Assembly: GCA_937905915.1 (NCBI GenBank)
Contig: CALCVR010000220.1
Span: 1-8,477 of the forward strand
DNA length: 8,477 nt
DNA from: an uncultured Eubacteriaceae bacterium
GTDB taxonomy: Bacteria; Bacillota; Clostridia; Oscillospirales; Acutalibacteraceae
Direction: 5' to 3'
Shown here one piece after another: positions 783 through 7,721 of the stretch (its first letter is position 1; each line of letters opens with the position of its first letter). The position numbers and the translations under genes are program-made. Below the pieces are notes generated by a model that saw only the letters and a list, made by a program, of their open reading frames with translations, did not search any database and was not told the origin of the DNA.

Positions 783-796
783 AGGTGCATGATTCG

Positions 797-1561
797 ATGA
801 GCAATCTGCGTTTTGAGAAAAGCAAATTCGGAAAGTTCTGGTCAGGCAAAGGGTTTTATATTGCGTTGGCGGTCTGCATGGTAGCGGTCGGCGGCGCAGC
901 ATGGTCAGCCTTCGGCGGAGGGGATTCGTCCCTGATGGAAAGCCAAGTGGATGACTATAGTTCACAGGTGGTGGTAGACTGGGGAGCATCCCAAGCGGTG
1001 GACAATCCTGCCAGCGATATCCCGATTGTAGTCAGTGACCCTGGAGATTTGGAACCGGAAGAGTCGGAATCAGAATCCAGTACCACAGCGGTACAGGCTC
1101 CTGCCGAACCGGAGGAACCGTCTAAGGCCCCTGCTTCCAATCAGGATGATGACAAACAGGCAGCGGTGATGTACCCAGCCGGTCAAAACGTCATGAAAGA
1201 GTTCAGCGGAGATGAATTGGTTTACTCCCAGACCCTCAAAGATTGGCGGGTGCATGACGGCGTAGACTTTGAAGTGGAAAAGGGTACGGCTGTCAAAGCC
1301 ATGACCGACGGCACCGTTACCGATGTGCGCGAGGATCCTATGTGGGGTACGGTGGTGGAGATCGATCACAATGGCGGCGTTGTGGCTACCTATTGCGGGT
1401 TAACCAAGAATGTAGCTGTCAAAAAGGGCGATACTGTTACAACCAGTCAACAGCTGGGCGCTGTGGGAGAGATCCCTTGTGAGATTGCGGAGGCATCCCA
1501 TTTGCATCTTAAAGTCACCAAAGACGGTCAGATTATCGACCCTGTGACCTTACTTCAGTAA
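797..1561 (+). CDS. spoIIQ: SpoIIQ-like M23 (LytM) peptidase-family protein
   Basis: A 254-residue protein with a basic N-terminus, one membrane segment (about residues 17-36), an acidic Ser/Glu/Pro-rich linker (about 50-120) and a C-terminal LytM domain. In B. subtilis SpoIIQ sits in the forespore membrane, binds mother-cell SpoIIIAH across the intermembrane space and is needed for engulfment and sigma-G activity. Here the metal-ligand motifs look intact: HDGVD (H...D) and a final HLH. B. subtilis SpoIIQ is degenerate at these positions, whereas C. difficile SpoIIQ is reported to keep them, so peptidase activity is possible. ATG 797 is chosen (GGAGG at 781-785, 11 bases away); a GTG at 785 lies inside that motif. 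The spoIIID gene nearby supports the sporulation role. A generic M23 membrane protein is the alternative. Confidence 0.78.
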   Translation: MSNLRFEKSKFGKFWSGKGFYIALAVCMVAVGGAAWSAFGGGDSSLMESQVDDYSSQVVVDWGASQAVDNPASDIPIVVSDPGDLEPEESESESSTTAVQAPAEPEEPSKAPASNQDDDKQAAVMYPAGQNVMKEFSGDELVYSQTLKDWRVHDGVDFEVEKGTAVKAMTDGTVTDVREDPMWGTVVEIDHNGGVVATYCGLTKNVAVKKGDTVTTSQQLGAVGEIPCEIAEASHLHLKVTKDGQIIDPVTLLQ

Positions 1562-1773: not shown

Positions 1774-2535
1774 ATGTTTGCAGAGGAGCGGCACCGAAAA
1801 ATTGTGGATCTGTTGCATGCCGATGGAACAGTCAAGGTGAAACAACTGAGCGAGATGTTCCAAGTCAGCGAGGATTGTATCCGGAAGGACCTTTCTTATC
1901 TGGAGAAAATGCAGTTGGTGAAACGCATCTATGGAGGAGCGGTGTTGCCGCGGGAGATGACGTTGGATCCGGCCTTGGCCAAACGGAAAATTGAAGATGA
2001 TCAGGGGAAGAGGATCATTGCTCAAAAAGCGCTTTCCCTTATCCAGCCCGGGGATACTGTTTTCCTGGATATCTCTACTATCAATGCCATTTTGGCAAGG
2101 CTTCTGCTGCAAAGCGGCAAAAGAGTGACGGTGGTTACCAATATGCTTGAGATTATAGAGGGATTTGCGACCCAAAGCAATGTCACTCTCATCGCTACCG
2201 GCGGCACATTCAATCAATTTTGCGATGGCTTTATTGGAAGCATTTGCATTGACGCCATTTCTCAATACCGGTTTGACCTAGGATTTCTGGGAGCGGTGGG
2301 AGCTGATGCCTATCAAAACAGCACTTACTCTTATGAAGCGGAGGAAGGGCTCACCAAACGAGCCATTGTAAGGGCAAGCCGCAAGGCTTATTTGCTTCTG
2401 GAGGAGAAGAAATTCAGCCGGGACGGCAATTATCAAGTATTGCCGCTAAGCGACTTTGCCGGCGTTATCACGGAAAAATCACCGGAACCGAAGGTGCTGG
2501 AGGCTTTAAAAGGGCTTAACATAAAGGTGTTATAA
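1774..2535 (+). CDS. DeoR-family transcriptional regulator
   Basis: A 253-residue protein with the two domains of the family. The N-terminal winged helix (about residues 3-57) shows ERHRKIVDLL, VKQLSEMFQVSEDCIRKDL and the wing motif YGGAV. The C-terminal DeoR sensor domain (about 75-235), related to ribose-5-phosphate isomerase-like folds, has the typical GDTVFLDIST, GGTFNQ and FLGAVGAD segments. Family members are usually repressors of sugar or nucleoside use that are released by a phosphorylated sugar; the effector cannot be read here. The ribosome binding site GAGGTGA lies 7 bases before the ATG. The pyrophosphatase gene starts 50 bases downstream with no terminator between, so co-transcription is likely. 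No sugar-use genes are adjacent, so the regulon is unknown. Confidence 0.88.
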   Translation: MFAEERHRKIVDLLHADGTVKVKQLSEMFQVSEDCIRKDLSYLEKMQLVKRIYGGAVLPREMTLDPALAKRKIEDDQGKRIIAQKALSLIQPGDTVFLDISTINAILARLLLQSGKRVTVVTNMLEIIEGFATQSNVTLIATGGTFNQFCDGFIGSICIDAISQYRFDLGFLGAVGADAYQNSTYSYEAEEGLTKRAIVRASRKAYLLLEEKKFSRDGNYQVLPLSDFAGVITEKSPEPKVLEALKGLNIKVL

Positions 2536-2585
2536 TCCCAATAGATGGTAAAATACAAGCGAAAAGGCACGGAGAAGGAGACTGT

Positions 2586-3158
2586 ATGATGAATATTTGG
2601 CATGATATAGAGCCGGAACGGGTAAACGAAAATGACTTTATGTGCGTCATCGAGATCCAAAAGGGCGGAAAGAACAAATATGAGCTGGATAAAAGCACAG
2701 GGCTTTTGCGCCTGGATCGCATTTTATATACTTCTACCGTCTATCCAGCCAACTACGGATTTATTCCCCGCACCTATGCCGACGACAAGGATCCCTTGGA
2801 CGTTTTGGTGCTATGCTCTGAACCCTTAATCCCTCTTTCGCTGGTACAGTGCTATCCCATCGGCGTCATCAAGATGATCGACGGCGAGCAGGCCGACGAG
2901 AAAATCATCGCCATTCCCTTCCAGGACCCCACCTATAACTGCTACCGGGATATCCAAGGAATCCCCCGCCATATACTGGACGAAATGATGCATTTCTTTG
3001 AAGTGTATAAAACCCTGGAGCATAAGGTAACCACTGTCCGGGAAGTATGCGGACGGGAGGAAGCGGTACGGGTCATCGCACGTTCTATTGAAAGTTATCA
3101 GAAGATTTTTGGCCAAAACAAGGCGGGGCAGAAGGACAAACGCAAAAAAGAAGGCTAA
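2586..3158 (+). CDS. ppa: Inorganic pyrophosphatase, family I
   Basis: A 190-residue cytoplasmic enzyme that hydrolyses pyrophosphate to two phosphates and so pulls biosynthetic reactions forward. Family I signatures are present: KNKYELDKSTGLLRLDR, the YPANYGFIPRTY segment, and DDKDPLDVLVL, which holds the metal-binding DxDPxD aspartates. The length is typical of bacterial family I enzymes; the last 15 residues form a Lys-rich tail. Two ATG codons stand in a row (2586 and 2589), with GGAG repeated at 2571-2580, so the start may be three bases later. It follows the DeoR gene closely and probably shares its transcript. Many Firmicutes use family II enzymes instead, but family I occurs in clostridia. 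Confidence 0.93.
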   Translation: MMNIWHDIEPERVNENDFMCVIEIQKGGKNKYELDKSTGLLRLDRILYTSTVYPANYGFIPRTYADDKDPLDVLVLCSEPLIPLSLVQCYPIGVIKMIDGEQADEKIIAIPFQDPTYNCYRDIQGIPRHILDEMMHFFEVYKTLEHKVTTVREVCGREEAVRVIARSIESYQKIFGQNKAGQKDKRKKEG

Positions 3159-3162
3159 AAAC

Positions 3163-3190
3163 TTGTGATAAAGACACAAAATTATATAAT
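3163..3190 (+). promoter_or_regulatory. Weak upstream promoter candidate
   Basis: TTGTGA (3163-3168), a 16-base spacer and TATAAT (3185-3190). The -35 box is part of a small inverted repeat TTGTG/CACAA. It could give a second, upstream start for the HPr-like gene, but AT-rich intergenic DNA often shows such matches. Confidence 0.27.
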
Positions 3191-3257
3191 GTAAATTGTG
3201 CAAAAACAACTAGAATCGTTTATTCTGCCGAAATTTGCTAAAATGCAAAAAACCTAT

Positions 3258-3286
3258 TTGACAGGTGGGAATAGGCCGTGTATAAT
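3258..3286 (+). promoter_or_regulatory. Consensus sigma-A promoter
   Basis: TTGACA (3258-3263), exactly 17 bases, then TATAAT (3281-3286): a perfect match to the vegetative consensus. It drives the HPr-like gene, with a leader of roughly 80 bases. Strong constitutive expression is expected. Confidence 0.85.
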
Positions 3287-3376
3287 AAAAACAGAAACAG
3301 AGATTAGCAAAAAGAACCACTCCCTGTTATCCCCACCATTCATCTATGGATAATATTTGCAAAGGAGAGATTGTAT

Positions 3377-3595
3377 ATGGTAACCATCAAAAAGTTTGAA
3401 TCCATTGAAGAGATCCAGGAGCTGCAGAAATTAGCCTGCAAAGTGCCGGAGGATGTATTTCTCCATTCCCAGGATGACTCTGTGATGGTAGATGCAAAAT
3501 CCTTTATCGGCCTGTTCACCTTGGATTTCAGCAAACCCGTTAAGGTGGTCACTGAATCGGAGTTTATCCATAAGGAGCTCCGCAAAGAGGAATAA
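3377..3595 (+). CDS. HPr-like (PTS phosphocarrier fold) protein lacking the active histidine
   Basis: A 72-residue protein whose second half, VMVDAKSFIGLFTLDFSKPV, matches the HPr region around the regulatory serine (Ser42 here, equivalent to Ser46). The N-terminal GLHARPA loop that carries the phosphorylated His15 in real HPr is missing; in its place is a polar helix-like stretch (EEIQELQKLACK). It therefore cannot act as a normal phosphocarrier of the sugar phosphotransferase system. A Crh-like regulatory role through serine phosphorylation is a guess. ATG 3377 is chosen over the TTG at 3371 because GGAG in AAAGGAGAG (3361-3369) lies 9 bases before it. The gene has its own promoter and terminator. 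Confidence 0.75.
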   Translation: MVTIKKFESIEEIQELQKLACKVPEDVFLHSQDDSVMVDAKSFIGLFTLDFSKPVKVVTESEFIHKELRKEE

Positions 3596-3616
3596 TCCCC
3601 ACAACCCCCAAATAAT

Positions 3617-3657
3617 AAACGGAAGGAACTACTGTGTTTCTTCCGTTTTTCTTTTTT
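3617..3657 (+). terminator. Rho-independent terminator after the HPr-like gene
   Basis: AAACGGAAG (3617-3625) pairs with CTTCCGTTT (3640-3648). The stem extends inward through GAAC/GTTT to a 6-base loop and is followed by a T-rich tract to 3657. It isolates spoIIID transcription from the HPr-like gene. Confidence 0.87.
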
Positions 3658-3675
3658 AGAGGGGTTTTGTCCGTC

Positions 3676-3707
3676 AGCATAACCCAAAGAGCACCTTGCA
3701 TATACAT
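3676..3707 (+). promoter_or_regulatory. Possible sigma-E promoter of spoIIID
   Basis: CAGCATAA near 3675-3682 and CATATACAT at 3699-3707 loosely fit the mother-cell sigma-E pattern (-35 containing ATA, -10 like CATACAAT). spoIIID is a sigma-E gene in B. subtilis, and this is the only interval between the upstream terminator and the gene. The match is imperfect. Confidence 0.35.
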
Positions 3708-3739
3708 AAGACAATTGGAACTTCGGGGAGGGCTTTTAT

Positions 3740-3871
3740 GTGAAGGGAATTATGGAAGAACGGGCGATTGAGCTTGGTACCTATATCATCGAGCATAAAG
3801 CAACCGTCCGTGCAGCTGCCAAACAGTTTGACATCTCTAAGAGCACCGTACATACGGTTGTGGCAATCTAG
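3740..3871 (+). CDS. spoIIID: spoIIID, 5' part (interrupted by the element)
   Basis: GTG at 3740, with GGGGAGGG at 3725-3732 as ribosome binding site, opens a 43-codon frame. Residues 1-38 match the N-terminal half of SpoIIID, the mother-cell DNA-binding protein that switches gene expression between sigma-E and sigma-K: EERAIELGTYII, TVRAAAKQFDISKSTVH. After His38 the frame reads five foreign codons (TVVAI) to a TAG at 3869. The break falls inside the recognition helix of the helix-turn-helix, so this fragment should not bind DNA normally. Joined at the shared ACCGTACA to the segment starting at 7545, it gives a complete 95-residue SpoIIID. The frame was below usual ORF-length limits, so it is easily missed. 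Confidence 0.93.
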   Translation: MKGIMEERAIELGTYIIEHKATVRAAAKQFDISKSTVHTVVAI

Positions 3872-3880
3872 AACGGTTTG
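3817..3880 (+). other. attL: left recombination junction in spoIIID
   Basis: The crossover lies in ACCGTACA (3845-3852), which is repeated at the right end, with CA at 3851-3852 as the likely central dinucleotide. To the left is spoIIID sequence (attB half). To the right is the element half-site TACGGTTGT (3853-3861) and an outer GAACG (3871-3875) followed by GTTT. Confidence 0.85.
3845..3852 (+). repeat. 8-bp direct repeat ACCGTACA, left copy
   Basis: Identical to 7539-7546. The bases on both sides differ (C versus A before, T versus C after), so identity is exactly 8 bp. The two copies are 3,694 bp apart. Confidence 0.93.
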
Positions 3881-3886
3881 GATGAA

Positions 3887-4132
3887 CTAAAAGTCATGGC
3901 GAGTTCCGCAGTCGCTGCCCATGGTTTCAAAAACGTGTATGATCTCTTCAATTTTAACAAAACAATAAGGATCATCTAAGCTATCATCCTCAAGGATAGC
4001 TTTTATTTTTTCTAGAGCAATATAACACTCCATTTCAAAGATATCTTTTATTCCAACTTCCAGGTCTGGAAAAGATATTACGATAGATTCATCTTCTAAT
4101 AATTTTTGCAAAATACCAGCATATAATTCCAT
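3887..4132 (-). CDS. Small acidic protein of unknown function, left end of element
   Basis: An 81-residue acidic, soluble protein (MELYAGILQKLLEDES at the start, DCGTRHDF at the end). I do not recognise a named family. From memory, short clostridial proteins with an ECY.AL..I..I and CF.KIEEI pattern and a final G.RHDF are found near mobile elements. AGAAGG stands about 8 bases before the ATG at 4132. It is transcribed from TTGACT/TATAAT and is divergent from the XRE gene. Its stop lies 35 bases inside the left junction, and no terminator follows, so its transcript may run antisense into the spoIIID 5' part. Candidate roles are an element-maintenance or regulatory partner of the XRE protein; none is shown. 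Confidence 0.7.
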   Translation of the reverse strand: MELYAGILQKLLEDESIVISFPDLEVGIKDIFEMECYIALEKIKAILEDDSLDDPYCFVKIEEIIHVFETMGSDCGTRHDF

Positions 4133-4149
4133 AAAATAAACCTTCTTAG

Positions 4150-4166
4150 TACGTTTATGTAACGTA
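4150..4166. promoter_or_regulatory. Palindromic candidate operator
   Basis: TACGTT (4150-4155) and AACGTA (4161-4166) form a perfect 6-bp inverted repeat with a 5-base gap. It abuts the -10 box of the minus-strand promoter. A third half-site TACGTT is at 4202-4207. Position and symmetry suit binding by the XRE protein encoded next door. Confidence 0.5.
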
Positions 4167-4195
4167 TTATATACCTATAATTATGCTAAAGTCAA
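4166..4195 (-). promoter_or_regulatory. Sigma-A promoter of the left-end acidic protein gene
   Basis: Read on the minus strand: TTGACT (4195-4190), an 18-base spacer, TATAAT (4171-4166). The start of transcription would fall inside the palindrome at 4150-4166, so a bound repressor would block it. A plus-strand TATAAT at 4176-4181 could serve the XRE gene, but it has only a weak -35 box. Confidence 0.65.
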
Positions 4196-4229
4196 GTAAA
4201 ATACGTTTTATTAATGTGAGACTTTAGTT

Positions 4230-4490
4230 ATGAAGAAAATTTCTTTCCAGGAAAATAAAAATATCATCTACCGTCATCTTAAATTGGCGCGGGTTCAGAA
4301 GGGATTGTCCCAAAGTCAGTTGGCCGCCAGAATGCAGCTGATGGGAGTCAATATGGATCAACAGATGATCAGCAAAATTGAAAATAACCACCGCATTGTC
4401 ACCGATTATGAACTTGCTTGCTTTTGTATTATTTTGAAGCAGGATGTTACTAATCTTTTAGAGGACTTTTATAAACACCATGTAGAATAA
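4230..4490 (+). CDS. XRE-family helix-turn-helix regulator
   Basis: An 86-residue protein that is nearly all one Cro/C1-type HTH domain (about residues 13-75): LKLARVQKGLSQSQLAARMQ, then QQMISKIENNHRIVTDYELACF. The recognition helix lies around QMISKIENNHR. Such single-domain proteins commonly control phages and mobile elements, bind as dimers to short palindromes and often regulate their own gene. The neighbouring palindrome at 4150-4166 is the natural candidate site. The ribosome binding site before ATG 4230 is poor (GTGAG at most), suggesting low expression. A terminator follows directly. It probably governs the divergent acidic-protein gene; control of the recombinase is possible but not shown. 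Confidence 0.88.
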   Translation: MKKISFQENKNIIYRHLKLARVQKGLSQSQLAARMQLMGVNMDQQMISKIENNHRIVTDYELACFCIILKQDVTNLLEDFYKHHVE

Positions 4491-4504
4491 TCAAAAAGGC
4501 CAAT

Positions 4505-4544
4505 AAAAAAACTCTCGTCTGAAATTTCAAGACGAGAGTTTTTT
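4505..4544. terminator. Bidirectional terminator between XRE and glycosyltransferase genes
   Basis: AACTCTCGTCT (4510-4520) pairs with AGACGAGAGTT (4530-4540), an 11-bp stem, flanked by an A-run on the left and a T-run on the right. It serves both convergent genes. Confidence 0.92.
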
Positions 4545-4553
4545 ATTGCGCGG

Positions 4554-5606
4554 CTACCGACAAAGCAGTTCATCCAACTTTTGCAAAATAGACGCGTTGT
4601 AATCCTCCAACCGGTTAGGGGTCTTAGGTGCTTTCTGAAAAGACGTTAAAGCGCTTACCATATCGTCAACGCCGGGCACAAAGATGTCGTATTTTTCCAA
4701 ATGTTTTGCAGCGAGGATTTTTAATCCTAAAACGCGGGCTTCCTGAACGGTAACAGGTTGTCCCTCAAAACGGGAAGGCACAACCAAAGCGTCCATTTGA
4801 TCCATATAAGGGTAAGGGTTGGGGCGGCTTCCCAGCATAGTGACTTGGGATTTCAGATGATATTCAGCAATCAATTGCTCCAATTGACTGCGGTCAGGGC
4901 CATCGCCGATAAAATAAAGATGGAGATCTTGGCGGGATTTAGAGGCTTTTGAAAAGTCCTTTAACAGCAAATCGAAGCCTTTCTGATGACACATACGTCC
5001 CACTGCCACAAGATTGCAGCAATGCGGGTTGACAGAAAAATCGATTTTTTCCTCCTTTTTCTCTAAAATCCCTGACACGTCGATGTAGTTGGGGATGGCA
5101 AAAACCGGTTTGTCCTGGATGCCCGTCAATTGACGGAAAGGCGGCACAATACCTTTTGATACCGCTACAAACTCATCAAAGTAAGAAAACTTACGTTTGA
5201 AAAAAGCAAAAAGAATGCGATACTTACAATTATACTTGTATTTCGCCCCAAGGTCATTGTGGCAAAAAAGGATATGTTTATCAGCAGGACAACGTAAGCA
5301 GTCCAAAGCCGTTTCGTTATGATCGCCGCCAAAGTCGATGGCGACGTCGTAATGCTCTGTGATTTTGGGACGGGGAAAGAAGCGATGCAACAGGCCAAAG
5401 GGCACAAAGCGGCACCAGTAAGGCAGGCGGGAAGTATAGTGAATGCAAACTTCTGGAGGAAAAGAACTTTCAAAAAAGCCGTCCCGATCGCAAAGATAGA
5501 GATCGATATGGTATTTCGTCAAGTCGATATGGCAAAGCAGATTTAGGAGGGCGCGTTGGATCCCGCCTACACCTAAATCTCGTTGGAATATGGCGATACG
5601 CCTCAT
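4554..5606 (-). CDS. Glycosyltransferase family 4 protein (element cargo)
   Basis: A 350-residue retaining glycosyltransferase with GT-B fold. The N-terminal domain begins RRIAIFQRDLGVGGIQRALL, the usual acceptor-side start with its glycine-rich loop. The C-terminal nucleotide-sugar domain shows VAVGRMCHQKGFDLLL, YFIGDGPDRSQLE and the EX7E motif in EGQPVTVQE, whose glutamates contact the donor. There is no signal peptide or membrane segment, so it is cytoplasmic and probably acts at the membrane face. Donor and acceptor cannot be told; enzymes of this type build surface polysaccharides or glycolipids. The start at 5606 is chosen because GGAGGT is 7 bases upstream; 25 further in-frame codons lie before it. 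It is unrelated to mobility and is the only metabolic cargo of the element. Confidence 0.9.
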   Translation of the reverse strand: MRRIAIFQRDLGVGGIQRALLNLLCHIDLTKYHIDLYLCDRDGFFESSFPPEVCIHYTSRLPYWCRFVPFGLLHRFFPRPKITEHYDVAIDFGGDHNETALDCLRCPADKHILFCHNDLGAKYKYNCKYRILFAFFKRKFSYFDEFVAVSKGIVPPFRQLTGIQDKPVFAIPNYIDVSGILEKKEEKIDFSVNPHCCNLVAVGRMCHQKGFDLLLKDFSKASKSRQDLHLYFIGDGPDRSQLEQLIAEYHLKSQVTMLGSRPNPYPYMDQMDALVVPSRFEGQPVTVQEARVLGLKILAAKHLEKYDIFVPGVDDMVSALTSFQKAPKTPNRLEDYNASILQKLDELLCR

Positions 5607-5865
5607 GAGGGTTACCTCCATGAATACAAAAGATAGATAGGAAAATGGAAAAGAAATTTGTTCCCTTATCAGTTTCGGCAAACAAAAAGGACTTTATGCC
5701 TTCAAACCAAAGGCTTTTTGAATACAAAACGCAAATAAAAAAACGCGGAAACGGCATACGGTTATCTTTCATTATAAGGGAGAAAAACAAGGATTGTCAA
5801 TTACAATCAGGGAGGCATAAAGCGGACAAGCTGCCGATATATATGGGACTGAGGGGTGGTATTTT

Positions 5866-6000
5866 ATGCAAAAGAAAGCCTTACATATTACCTTCCACAA
5901 TCCCAATTCCCCGGAAAAGACAGCGCGGTTTCTTGTAAGGATGCTGGCAAAGGCGGCGGTGGCGGGGCAGAAACAGGATAGGAAGGGGGAAGCCTTGTGA
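5866..6000 (+). CDS. 44-residue protein coupled to the recombinase
   Basis: ATG at 5866, with GAGGGG about 9 bases upstream, opens a 44-codon frame: MQKKALHITFHNPNSPEKT, then an Arg/Lys/Ala-rich helical tail. Its stop overlaps the recombinase GTG start by four bases (GTGA, 5997-6000), which implies translational coupling. Small proteins beginning with an HITFHNPN-type stretch are, to my recollection, frequent just before serine recombinases of Clostridia, but I know no proven function. A recombination directionality factor or a leader peptide setting recombinase dosage are the obvious possibilities; both are inference. It is too short for most gene callers. Confidence 0.72.
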   Translation: MQKKALHITFHNPNSPEKTARFLVRMLAKAAVAGQKQDRKGEAL

Positions 6001-6452
6001 AAATAGCAGCCTATTGCCGCGTGTCCACCGATAAGGAGGATCAACTCAATAGCCTAGAGGCGCAAAAGAAATTCTTTGAGGAATTCGCCCAGAAAAATGG
6101 GCATCGGCTGCTCCACGTTTATGCCGATGAAGGGATTAGCGGAACGAAAGTGAAAAACCGTCACGCTTTTCTAGAGATGATGGAGCAGGCGGAACAAAAA
6201 AAGTTCGATATGGTGGTGGTCAAAGACATCAGCCGGTTTGCCCGCAATACAGTGGATTTGCTTACCAGTACCCGTCGTCTCAAAGCCCTGGGCATTGAGA
6301 TGCTGTTTCTCACCTCCAACCAGACGGTACTGGGCAATTCGGAATTTGTGTTGACGGTATTTGGCGCCTTGGCCCAAGAAGAAAGCGCCAATACCTCCAA
6401 ACGAGTCAAGTTTGGGAAAAGATGCAACGCCCAATTTCGTGTTTGGGTATGA
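5997..6452 (+). CDS. Large serine recombinase, N-terminal catalytic part (frame broken)
   Basis: Residues 1 to about 135 are the resolvase-type catalytic domain: AAYCRVSTDKEDQ with nucleophile Ser10, YADEGISGTK, VVKDISRFARNT with the conserved arginines, and the start of the long E helix (LAQEESANTSKRVKFGK). The enzyme cuts both DNAs through a phosphoserine link and rotates the halves at a 2-bp core. After KFGKRCNA the frame runs out of homology and stops at 6452. The continuation is in the +1 frame. GTG 5997 is the start, coupled to the 44-residue gene. SpoIVCA, which removes skin in B. subtilis, belongs to the same superfamily. Alone, this part lacks the DNA-recognition domains. Confidence 0.88.
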   Translation: MKIAAYCRVSTDKEDQLNSLEAQKKFFEEFAQKNGHRLLHVYADEGISGTKVKNRHAFLEMMEQAEQKKFDMVVVKDISRFARNTVDLLTSTRRLKALGIEMLFLTSNQTVLGNSEFVLTVFGALAQEESANTSKRVKFGKRCNAQFRVWV

Positions 6453-7446
6453 CAAGACCAAGGGAGATTACTTCCATCTCCACGTCAATCCTAAAGAGGC
6501 TCGTGTGGTGCGGCAGATTTTTAGACTTTATGTGGAGGAAGGGATGGGGGCGGCTAAAATTGCTTCCCTCCTCAATGAACAGGGGGAATGTACCAAACGC
6601 GGCTATGACTTTAGCCAAAACGCAGTGATGCGCATTTTACGCAATCCTATTTATGTGGGGAAAGTGGTCAACGGGAAACAGGAAGTGTCCGATTTCCTCA
6701 CCAGCCAAAGAAGGGACAAAGATCCATCCGATTGGATGGTGACCGACAATCCACAATTGTGCATTGTGGAGGATTCCCTGTTTGAAGCGGCACAAACCAT
6801 TTTATCGGAACGGGCAAAAGCCGTCAAAAAAGGAAAAAAGCCAAGCAGTCAGCACTTGTTCAGTACCCTGATTCAATGCGGGAATTGTGGACATACCTTT
6901 CGCCGGTTTGTGCGGACCTATCGAAATACCACCATCCGGTGGATTTGCGGCGGCCGGAATGCAAAAGGGGCGGACAGTTGTCCCAATGCCATTGTACTGG
7001 ATGAACGGCAGTTGGAACAAGAGATCTTAACCTATCTGAAACAGATGCTGGAAAGTGAAACAGATGCGTGTGCTGCCTTTGACAAAGAGGTCCGGAGCAT
7101 ATTGGGTCAAAGAGGGATGGGGGAAACCCGGAAAGTTTTAGAGGAAACCTGCAAACGCCTGAAAAGAAACAGGGAAAAATGCTTGGATCTATATGAAAAC
7201 GGCGTCATCAGCCTAACGGAATTACAGGAACGCACCGGAAGAATCCTGTGCCAGTTGAGCGAAGCCCAAGAGCGGCTGGAAAGGATGCAGTCTCCTTCCC
7301 GATTAACAGTACAGCCGGATACTTTTTCCCTTCAGGACATGTTGCTCCCAGGACATCTAAACAATGCCATGCTCAAACATCTGATTGATACCATTTCCGT
7401 AGACCAGGAGGGGCAGGTGGACGTTTATTTGAAATCCCTGGCTTAA
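6361..7446 (+). CDS. Large serine recombinase, C-terminal DNA-binding part (frame broken)
   Basis: Homology begins at about 6430; the codons from 6361 are only an open frame opposite the N-terminal part. It holds the 'recombinase' domain (NPKEARVVRQIFRLY, KIASLLNEQG, ILRNPIYVGKVVNGKQEVSD), then a zinc ribbon (CGNCGHTF, later ICGG and DSCPN) and a long charged coiled coil, about 7070-7310, of the kind that controls synapsis and direction in serine integrases. With the N-terminal part, the whole gene would encode about 482-488 residues, a normal family length. No ribosome binding site precedes an internal start, so independent translation is unlikely. The gene is followed by a terminator and then the right junction. 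Confidence 0.86.
   Translation: MAPWPKKKAPIPPNESSLGKDATPNFVFGYDKTKGDYFHLHVNPKEARVVRQIFRLYVEEGMGAAKIASLLNEQGECTKRGYDFSQNAVMRILRNPIYVGKVVNGKQEVSDFLTSQRRDKDPSDWMVTDNPQLCIVEDSLFEAAQTILSERAKAVKKGKKPSSQHLFSTLIQCGNCGHTFRRFVRTYRNTTIRWICGGRNAKGADSCPNAIVLDERQLEQEILTYLKQMLESETDACAAFDKEVRSILGQRGMGETRKVLEETCKRLKRNREKCLDLYENGVISLTELQERTGRILCQLSEAQERLERMQSPSRLTVQPDTFSLQDMLLPGHLNNAMLKHLIDTISVDQEGQVDVYLKSLA
6411..6435 (+). other. Frame break in the recombinase gene
   Basis: The upstream frame reads KFGKRCNA; the downstream frame resumes at PNFVFGYDK (CCC at 6430). Related clostridial recombinases, as I recall them, have about five extra residues (like EKGRV) between these blocks. A loss of about 17 bases explains both the missing residues and the +1 shift. 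A GGGAAAAG run lies here, but it fits no programmed-shift site I know. Confidence 0.75.
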
Positions 7447-7453
7447 AAGAGCG

Positions 7454-7489
7454 AAAAAAGCGGCGGCGCAGTTGTGCCGCTGCTTTTTT
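7454..7489 (+). terminator. Terminator after the recombinase
   Basis: The run AAAAAAGCGGCGGCGCA, a short loop and TGCCGCTGCTTTTTT form a GC-rich stem with one mismatch and a 2-base bulge, ending in six T residues. It lies about 50 bases before the right junction and would stop element transcripts from entering the spoIIID 3' part. Confidence 0.82.
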
Positions 7490-7516
7490 ACTTTAAAAAC
7501 ACGCAACAAAAATCCT

Positions 7517-7575
7517 AAAATCGTTCGGAATGGTGACAACCGTACACAAAGATGTATCAGAACGGCTCAAGTATG
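7517..7575 (+). other. attR: right recombination junction in spoIIID
   Basis: The element half-site has ACAACCGTA at 7536-7544 and an outer AAATCGTTC (7518-7526). The likely crossover dinucleotide CA is at 7545-7546, followed by spoIIID sequence. The direct orientation relative to the left junction means recombination deletes the element rather than inverting it. Confidence 0.85.
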
Positions 7576-7721
7576 TGGATCGGCAGCTTTATCAGGAGGT
7601 AAAAACCGTGTTGGACACCAACAAAGCCCAACGGCATATCCGTGGAGGCATGGCCACACGGCGCAAATACAAAAAAGATTACGACCAATCTTCAGAGGAA
7701 TCCGAAGCATCGTCCTGTTGA
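7530..7721 (+). CDS. spoIIID: spoIIID, 3' part (separated by the element)
   Basis: True spoIIID sequence runs from 7545 (CAC AAA GAT) to the TGA at 7719-7721. It encodes the rest of the recognition helix (HKDVSERL) and the C-terminal basic region with RHIRGGMATRRKYKKD, closely matching RHLRGGEATKLKYKKD of B. subtilis SpoIIID. The ATG at 7530 is element DNA and has no ribosome binding site, so this part is probably not translated on its own. Rejoined to residues 1-37 from the left part, it gives a 95-residue protein ending EASSC. A strong terminator follows at 7742. Confidence 0.92.
   Translation: MVTTVHKDVSERLKYVDRQLYQEVKTVLDTNKAQRHIRGGMATRRKYKKDYDQSSEESEASSC
7539..7546 (+). repeat. 8-bp direct repeat ACCGTACA, right copy
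   Basis: Matches 3845-3852. It is read in the same codon phase in both spoIIID parts (ACC GTA CA-), which is why excision restores the frame exactly. Confidence 0.93.

What the first reader, a model, noticed from the sequence alone, without database searches (positions are those of the whole stretch)
3740..7721. spoIIID is split by an excisable skin-like element and is restored in frame by precise removal
Seen directly: a 43-codon SpoIIID N-terminal part at 3740 and the matching C-terminal part at 7545-7721. Both have ACCGTACA at the break in the same codon phase, and a serine recombinase lies between. The joined product has 95 residues and aligns along its whole length with B. subtilis SpoIIID. 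Known systems of this kind split sigK (skin) or spsM and are excised in the mother cell. I do not recall a described spoIIID case, though I cannot check the literature. Because SpoIIID itself controls the sigma-E to sigma-K step, a DNA switch here would gate late mother-cell expression one stage earlier than skin does. The break cuts the recognition helix, so neither part should work.
Basis: partly seen in the sequence, partly recalled or inferred. Interest (0 to 1): 0.95.

Follow-up and report, generated by a model that had tools for sequence, protein, structure and literature searches.

The report
spoIIID split by excisable recombinase element
In this bacterium and in at least 24 related Clostridia the sporulation regulator gene spoIIID is cut in two at the same codon by a DNA element with a recombinase gene; the element is predicted to be cut out precisely during spore formation to rebuild the gene, a kind of DNA switch so far described for other sporulation genes.

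Summary
Confirmed and extended. The window holds spoIIID as two halves (3740-3853, 7545-7721) around a 3.7-kb element with a large serine recombinase gene, a 44-aa ORF, an HTH gene and a glycosyltransferase. The element ends form a dyad-symmetric attP around a CA in the His38 codon. In 25 further genomes with this recombinase clade SpoIIID was found only as halves (both halves in 24). All 25 loci with both halves, window included, rejoin in frame. An uninterrupted metagenomic SpoIIID (P0001) equals the product predicted for relative G151 in all 94 residues after the initiator. Close pairs show strong purifying selection. Against: the window's own recombinase is frameshifted (a near-identical intact copy, P0222, exists); no excised circle was found; no rejoined copy was found for a second genus; sporulation timing is inferred and the promoter scan did not support it. 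Recombinase and SpoIIID distances are uncorrelated, so the elements seem to move between hosts. No paper retrieved describes a spoIIID case. It works like skin, with a new target gene one step earlier in the mother-cell cascade.

The parts
3740..3853 (+). spoIIID 5' half, codons 1-38 (GTG start; its reading frame runs on to a stop at 3871)
   Evidence: Pfam PF12116 E 8e-15; frame
3677..3707 (+). sigma-E-like promoter block of spoIIID (GCATAAC ... CATATACAT), conserved in window, G151 and G020
   Evidence: alignment; the fixed regex itself did not hit the window; the consensus is recalled; a hint only
3845..3852 (+). attL core ACCGTACA; likely crossover dinucleotide CA at 3851-3852
3853..3879 (+). 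element-side arm of attL (one half of the attP dyad)
   Evidence: 27-nt inverted pair with 7518-7544, 74% complementary; majority consensus of 25 such arms
3887..4132 (-). 81-aa ORF, function unknown, 98% identical in G151
4230..4490 (+). HTH_3 regulator, 86 aa
   Evidence: Pfam E 6e-8
4554..5606 (-). GT4-type glycosyltransferase cargo gene, 350 aa, also in G151 and G020
   Evidence: Pfam; 81% and 72% identity; dN 0.12, dS 1.60 against G151
5866..6000 (+). 44-aa ORF with an FHNPN-type motif, overlapping the recombinase start; candidate recombination directionality factor
   Evidence: related ORF upstream of the recombinase in 20 of 28 loci, judged by eye; no Pfam match
5997..7446 (+). large serine recombinase (Resolvase, Recombinase and zinc-ribbon domains), frameshifted in this contig by an out-of-frame 17-nt deletion relative to G151
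   Evidence: intact near-identical copy P0222
7518..7544 (+). element-side arm of attR (other half of the attP dyad)
   Evidence: majority consensus of 26 such arms
7539..7546 (+). attR core ACCGTACA; likely crossover dinucleotide CA at 7545-7546
7545..7721 (+). spoIIID 3' half, from the His38 codon to the stop
   Evidence: Pfam PF12116 E 6e-22

Best explanation
The window holds spoIIID split at codon 38 by a 3.7-kb element with its own large serine recombinase gene, and site-specific recombination at a CA dinucleotide would likely excise the element and rebuild a full 95-residue SpoIIID in the sporulating mother cell. Shown by sequence: both halves, the shared core, the attP-like arms, the recombinase domains, and SpoIIID found only as halves in 25 other genomes that carry this recombinase clade. 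Supported by one metagenomic protein: that the rejoined gene exists with the exact predicted sequence, in the species of G151 or a very near one. Inferred: that the small FHNPN protein sets the direction towards excision; that excision happens after sigma-E becomes active, in the mother cell only, so the spore keeps the element; and that control cannot rest on SpoIIID itself, unlike skin of C. difficile and B. subtilis. In this very contig the recombinase is frameshifted, so this allele is a recent loss, a sequencing error, or needs a recombinase supplied from elsewhere.
For: Halves, core and in-frame joining. Of the 14 genomes with a clade recombinase in the family sample, 12 have only split SpoIIID; so have all 13 order-sample genomes that were picked because a half lay beside the recombinase. 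All 25 loci with both halves, window included, rejoin at STVH|KDV without a stop, with attP arms of majority consensus AAACCGTTC...ACAACCGTA-CA-TACGGATGT...GAACGGTTT; CA is the only stretch shared by attL and attR in all 25. P0001, uninterrupted, equals G151's joined product at 94 of 94 residues after the initiator. Window against G020: 19 nucleotide differences and no amino-acid change in 81 codons. In 11 of 26 loci the 3' half has no in-frame start between the nearest upstream stop and codon 39. The recombinase hits of all 25 relatives show no stop inside. SpoIVA is present in 15 of 15 split genomes tested. Solved relatives of the recombinase include YokA, the integrase of SPbeta.
Against: The window's own recombinase is broken. 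P0001 is one 736-base contig and could come from a strain that never had the element. A search with the joined product of a second genus (G153; G025 and G233 differ from it by one residue each) found nothing above 80% identity among the best 120 listed. No attP circle in viral contigs with two patterns. A fixed sigma-E-like pattern upstream of the small ORF or recombinase hit only 2 of 28 loci (0.36 expected), so sporulation control has no support from sequence. The FHNPN ORF was not found in 8 of 28 loci (for G058 and G725 little upstream sequence was in hand). Two genomes with the recombinase, G112 and G040, have an intact spoIIID, and some high-scoring recombinases of the class sample (L221, L224, L228) have no spoIIID half within their loci.
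Confidence: 0.82

Rival explanations
1. The insertion has permanently destroyed spoIIID, and these lineages have lost or rewired sporulation; the halves are remnants.
For: The window's recombinase is frameshifted; no rejoined copy was found for the G153 genus.
Against: Both halves are under strong purifying selection in the close pairs compared, 25 of 25 loci rejoin in frame, spoIVA is present in 15 of 15 genomes tested, the recombinase hits of the 25 relatives have no stop inside and an intact near-copy of the window's own exists.
Confidence: 0.08
2. The element is an ordinary integrating island that uses the invariant spoIIID codons as a landing site and excises at random or under stress, without a developmental role; sporulation proceeds in the few cells that have lost it.
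For: Recombinase and SpoIIID distances are uncorrelated (Mantel rho 0.01), so the elements seem to move; the CA is invariant in 77 of 77 intact genes; no sigma-E signal upstream of the recombinase; cargo is varied.
Against: Inference: random loss alone would leave spores without the element, whereas 25 genomes keep it with no intact copy found; retention fits excision confined to the mother cell. Recombinase and glycosyltransferase of the small elements of the window and G151 are under constraint, and the small ORF is kept in window, G151 and G020.
Confidence: 0.2
3. The halves act as two separate polypeptides.
For: The window's 3' half has an in-frame ATG five codons upstream of the His38 codon.
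Against: The break lies inside helix 34-48; 11 of 26 3' halves lack an in-frame start between the nearest upstream stop and codon 39; what follows the 5' half varies in sequence and length.
Confidence: 0.03
4. Assembly chimera.
For: The window is a contig without a held genome.
Against: The same arrangement lies inside a 2.54-Mb contig (G020), and 21 genomes have both halves on one contig and strand.
Confidence: 0.01

Closest known systems
skin elements in sigK (B. subtilis, C. difficile)
   Same: Split mother-cell regulator gene, serine recombinase in the element, precise excision that restores the gene (PMC5025042, abstract start and passages; rest recalled).
   Different: The gene here is spoIIID, upstream of sigK. 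Skin excision itself needs SpoIIID in C. difficile and, as cited there, in B. subtilis, which a spoIIID element cannot use. Of 15 split-spoIIID genomes tested, 10 have a full-length sigK-like gene and 3 have it in two pieces.
gin element in gerE (B. cereus ATCC10987), with recombinase GirC and 42-aa RDF GirX
   Same: Non-phage island in a small mother-cell regulator gene; short core; small RDF (PMC5595907, first part and passages).
   Different: Other gene and host group; gin has three recombinase genes and 28.6 kb, the window element one and 3.7 kb. Kinship of GirX to the FHNPN ORF was not tested.
SPbeta in spsM, vfbin in spoVFB, yin in yabG
   Same: Intervening elements in sporulation genes (list in PMC10747680 passages). 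The recombinase profile matches solved YokA (SPbeta) over positions 48-477 of 501.
   Different: Other genes; those elements are described there as prophage or prophage-like.

Membership tests
sporulation-gene intervening element (skin-like) | lies inside a sporulation gene | tested here: met
   Pfam and NCBIfam SpoIIID halves
sporulation-gene intervening element (skin-like) | precise joining at a short shared core restores the reading frame | tested here: met
   25 of 25 loci with both halves; uninterrupted protein P0001
sporulation-gene intervening element (skin-like) | element encodes its own serine recombinase | tested here: met
   no stop inside in the hits of 25 relatives; frameshifted in the window itself, with an intact near-copy in the protein database
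sporulation-gene intervening element (skin-like) | no intact copy of the gene elsewhere in the genome | tested here: met
   none found in 25 relatives (drafts); the window's own genome is not held
sporulation-gene intervening element (skin-like) | recombination directionality factor | tested here: inconclusive
   candidate ORF in 20 of 28 loci by eye, no family match
sporulation-gene intervening element (skin-like) | excision confined to sporulating mother cells | not testable with these tools
   no reads or expression data; the promoter scan gave no support
skin proper | splits sigK | tested here: not met
   the split gene is spoIIID
large serine integrase | Resolvase, Recombinase and zinc-ribbon domains; attP dyad with a central dinucleotide | tested here: met
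   activity not tested

The most novel reading that the evidence does not exclude
spoIIID is a class-wide landing site for a mobile family of recombinase-bearing islands that survive by leaving only the doomed mother cell; some hosts have domesticated a minimal 3-4 kb version, and a few (G151, G135, G531) have both spoIIID and sigK split, so that two DNA excisions would have to follow one another in one cell, the first under a control that does not need SpoIIID.
Probability: 0.6. Interest if true: 0.88.

Novelty: new variant of a known kind. Interest (0 to 1): 0.82.

Why it matters
It moves the known kind of DNA switch from sigK to its upstream regulator and shows it as a recurrent and apparently spreading system in Clostridia. 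A named species with a held genome (Solibaculum mannosilyticum) makes it directly testable. It also predicts that excision must be controlled without SpoIIID, and it warns that spoIIID may be scored as missing or as a fragment in such genomes.

Tried and rejected
Looked for attP circles in viral contigs with two patterns: none. Recombinase C part in viral contigs: three 32% relatives. Phage records: the best match, MT838016.1, proved to be a piece of an integrated spoIIID element with a 3' half beside the recombinase, not a free circle. Plasmids: all 500 matching records under 60% identity, at most 33% in the 8 rows listed. DeoR protein as a kinship marker: uninformative. sigma-E-like pattern (fixed regex, mononucleotide shuffles): 6 of 25 upstream of spoIIID against 0.29 expected, but 2 of 28 upstream of the recombinase operon against 0.36, so no claim for the latter. 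The dN values are not quoted, because some are non-zero without amino-acid changes; raw differences are given instead. A first conservation script found no sites and was redone (77 of 80 loci used, 3 dropped by its filters). Papers: the searches listed no spoIIID case; supplements could not be read, so surveys of integrase target sites may list it.
Full report
OBSERVATION. Both spoIIID halves are present at the stated places and are recognised by Pfam and, below its full-length cut-off, by NCBIfam. The 8-mer ACCGTACA occurs on the + strand at 3845-3852 and 7539-7546 in the same codon phase; joining gives a 95-residue SpoIIID without a stop; the two cores start 3,694 nt apart. Between them lie an 81-aa ORF of unknown function, an HTH_3 gene, a GT4-type glycosyltransferase, a 44-aa ORF and a large serine recombinase. 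The recombinase is frameshifted in this contig: G151 has 39 nt between the two conserved blocks where the window has 22.

ATTACHMENT SITES. The element-side sequences at the two ends are imperfect inverted repeats of each other (3853-3879 and 7518-7544, 74%), so the circle would carry a dyad-symmetric attP. 26 left arms and 25 right arms share a majority consensus, from which a few loci (such as G468 and G747) depart. What attL and attR share differs between loci, from 2 to 12 nt, and only CA is common to all 25 loci with both halves; this is the likely crossover dinucleotide, inside the His38 codon. In 77 intact spoIIID genes, out of the 80 named loci, this CA is invariant.

RECURRENCE. In 250 genomes of the family of Caproiciproducens faecalis (G007, as the tool groups it) the window's recombinase C part found 16 hits in 14 genomes (E at most 7e-51), apart from other serine recombinases (next E 4e-30). 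Of the 30 recombinase loci fetched there, 11 have the SpoIIID 3' half beside the recombinase. Of those 14 genomes 12 have only split SpoIIID and 2 (G112, G040) an intact gene; in G233 recombinase and halves lie on three contigs. In a SpoIIID census of 398 genomes, 336 have a match. Besides these 12, 10 had a single weak partial match; in 7 of the 10 (L141-L147) the break and the arm look the same, and no second half was found. In 394 genomes of the order, 30 recombinase loci were fetched; 15 have the 3' half (3 of them repeats of G135, G224 and G047) and one the 5' half: 13 new genomes. In none of these 13 was an intact copy found; both halves were found in 12, and in G418 only the 3' half. 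G493 has a second 5'-half-like match, and G162 and G409 a further weak one. In 391 genomes of the class 5 more have a spoIIID half beside the recombinase among 17 loci looked at; L221 and L224, high-scoring, have none within their loci; these genomes were not tested for an intact copy. Of the 24 relatives with both halves, 21 have them on one contig and strand; G233, G058 and G486 have them on different contigs. Distances between halves run from 3.0 kb (G020) to about 35 kb (G531).

THE REJOINED GENE. A search of about 5.8 billion proteins with the window's joined product gave, as top hit, P0001: 95 aa on one 736-base metagenomic contig, 94% identical to the query; the other 119 listed are at most 82%. 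P0001 equals G151's joined product at all 94 residues after the initiator, and the window's at 88 of 94. So the uninterrupted allele exists in nature, either excised or never occupied. The same search for the genus of G025, G153 and G233 found none.

CONSTRAINT. Window against G020: 5 + 14 nucleotide differences and no amino-acid change over 38 + 43 codons; G025 against G153: 7 + 22 differences and one change; the distant pairs in the same call differ more. SpoIVA is present in 15 of 15 tested, out of 25 split genomes. P0222, 488 aa, matches the window's two recombinase pieces at 136 of 137 and 338 of 339 residues, so an intact near-copy exists. P0224, on a contig of 2,541,474 bases, is named from Solibaculum mannosilyticum; this is the length of G020's contig.

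MECHANISM. The break falls after residue 38 inside helix 34-48 of an AlphaFold model of P0001 (mean pLDDT 91), which by its place in the helix-turn-helix is the recognition helix (recalled anatomy; solved relative 2l0k), so neither half should bind DNA. In 11 of 26 loci the 3' half has no in-frame start between the nearest stop and codon 39. The recombinase has the domains of large serine integrases and its profile matches solved YokA, the SPbeta integrase, over most of its length. A related small ORF with an FHNPN-like motif lies upstream of the recombinase in 20 of 28 loci, counted by eye (24 regex hits, 4 of them judged chance; two of the 28 loci, G112 and G040, are not spoIIID loci). By analogy with GirX (42 aa) and CD1234 it is the candidate directionality factor; this is inference. 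In C. difficile skin excision needs SpoIIID through its RDF; here that would be circular, so sigma-E alone or another signal is predicted. sigK, in 15 split genomes: a full-length sigK-like match in 10, of which 2 pass the NCBIfam cut-off and 8 are assigned by score and start position against the sigma-E-like hits; two pieces in 3 (G151 on two contigs, G135, G531); no clear sigK in 2 (G415, G638).

EVOLUTION. On a quick tree of 39 recombinases the 25 spoIIID-linked and the 9 linked to a second gene are strongly clustered by target (4 changes over all groups, shuffled mean 12.9), but the spoIIID group needs 2 changes and is not shown to be one clade. Recombinase and SpoIIID distances in 24 genomes are uncorrelated (rho 0.01; 869 of 2000 permutations as high), so the elements seem to move between hosts. 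Cargo of larger elements includes restriction-modification-like and VapE-like genes (G133), riboflavin genes (G552) and signalling genes (G531) (10 proteins scanned, 2 without a family).

NOVELTY. Known split sporulation genes listed in 2023 are sigK, spsM, spoVFB and gerE, with yabG added there (passages of PMC10747680). PMC6957869 (passages) notes that almost all such elements sit in mother-cell-specific genes. No spoIIID case appeared in the searches; subscription papers and supplements are not covered. Papers were seen as passages (PMC6957869, PMC5595907 with its first part, PMC10747680, PMC5025042, PMC12056005); all others as search listings.

On rereading the calls I changed the plain count from 25 to 24 relatives (one has only a 3' half), stated that the 13 order genomes were picked by adjacency, and added the sigK cut-off, the extra weak matches and the loci without a spoIIID half.

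Noticed in passing
L136:1169-1639 and L136:9308-9688 (G025); 3' part also beside sister recombinases in L135 (G040), L137 (G233) and in several of L174-L185 and L226-L235: A second gene, Cys-rich and about 275 aa when intact, its 3' part without Pfam or NCBIfam match, is split (residues 1-156 and 151-275, 7.7 kb apart in G025) beside a sister clade of the recombinase; G025 thus has two split genes.
   Followed up: partly
G151 (C69, C88), G135 (C21), G531 (C1): sigK-like gene also in two pieces in 3 of 15 split-spoIIID genomes, so two excisions would be needed in one mother cell.
   Followed up: partly
attR of L124, L126, L127, L129, L130, L132, L133, L134: In these elements the recombinase reading frame ends right at the attR core and its stop codon TAA is completed by spoIIID sequence, so excision would change its C-terminus.
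   Followed up: no
L238 (MT838016.1), 2113-3772: A GenBank record called Bacteriophage sp. from human faeces is a piece of an integrated spoIIID element: recombinase 49% identical, followed by a SpoIIID 3' half.
   Followed up: yes
L204 (G552): The 7.8-kb element in spoIIID carries RibD-like and RibBA-like riboflavin genes.
   Followed up: no
G112 C15 and C11; G493 C10 and C23: G112 has an intact spoIIID plus a weak second N-terminal match (E 1e-9), and its clade recombinase sits at a contig end. G493 has two 5'-half-like matches.
   Followed up: no
window 785-1561: SpoIIQ-like M23 peptidase gene upstream of spoIIID (NCBIfam E 7e-20, below its cut-off).
   Followed up: no
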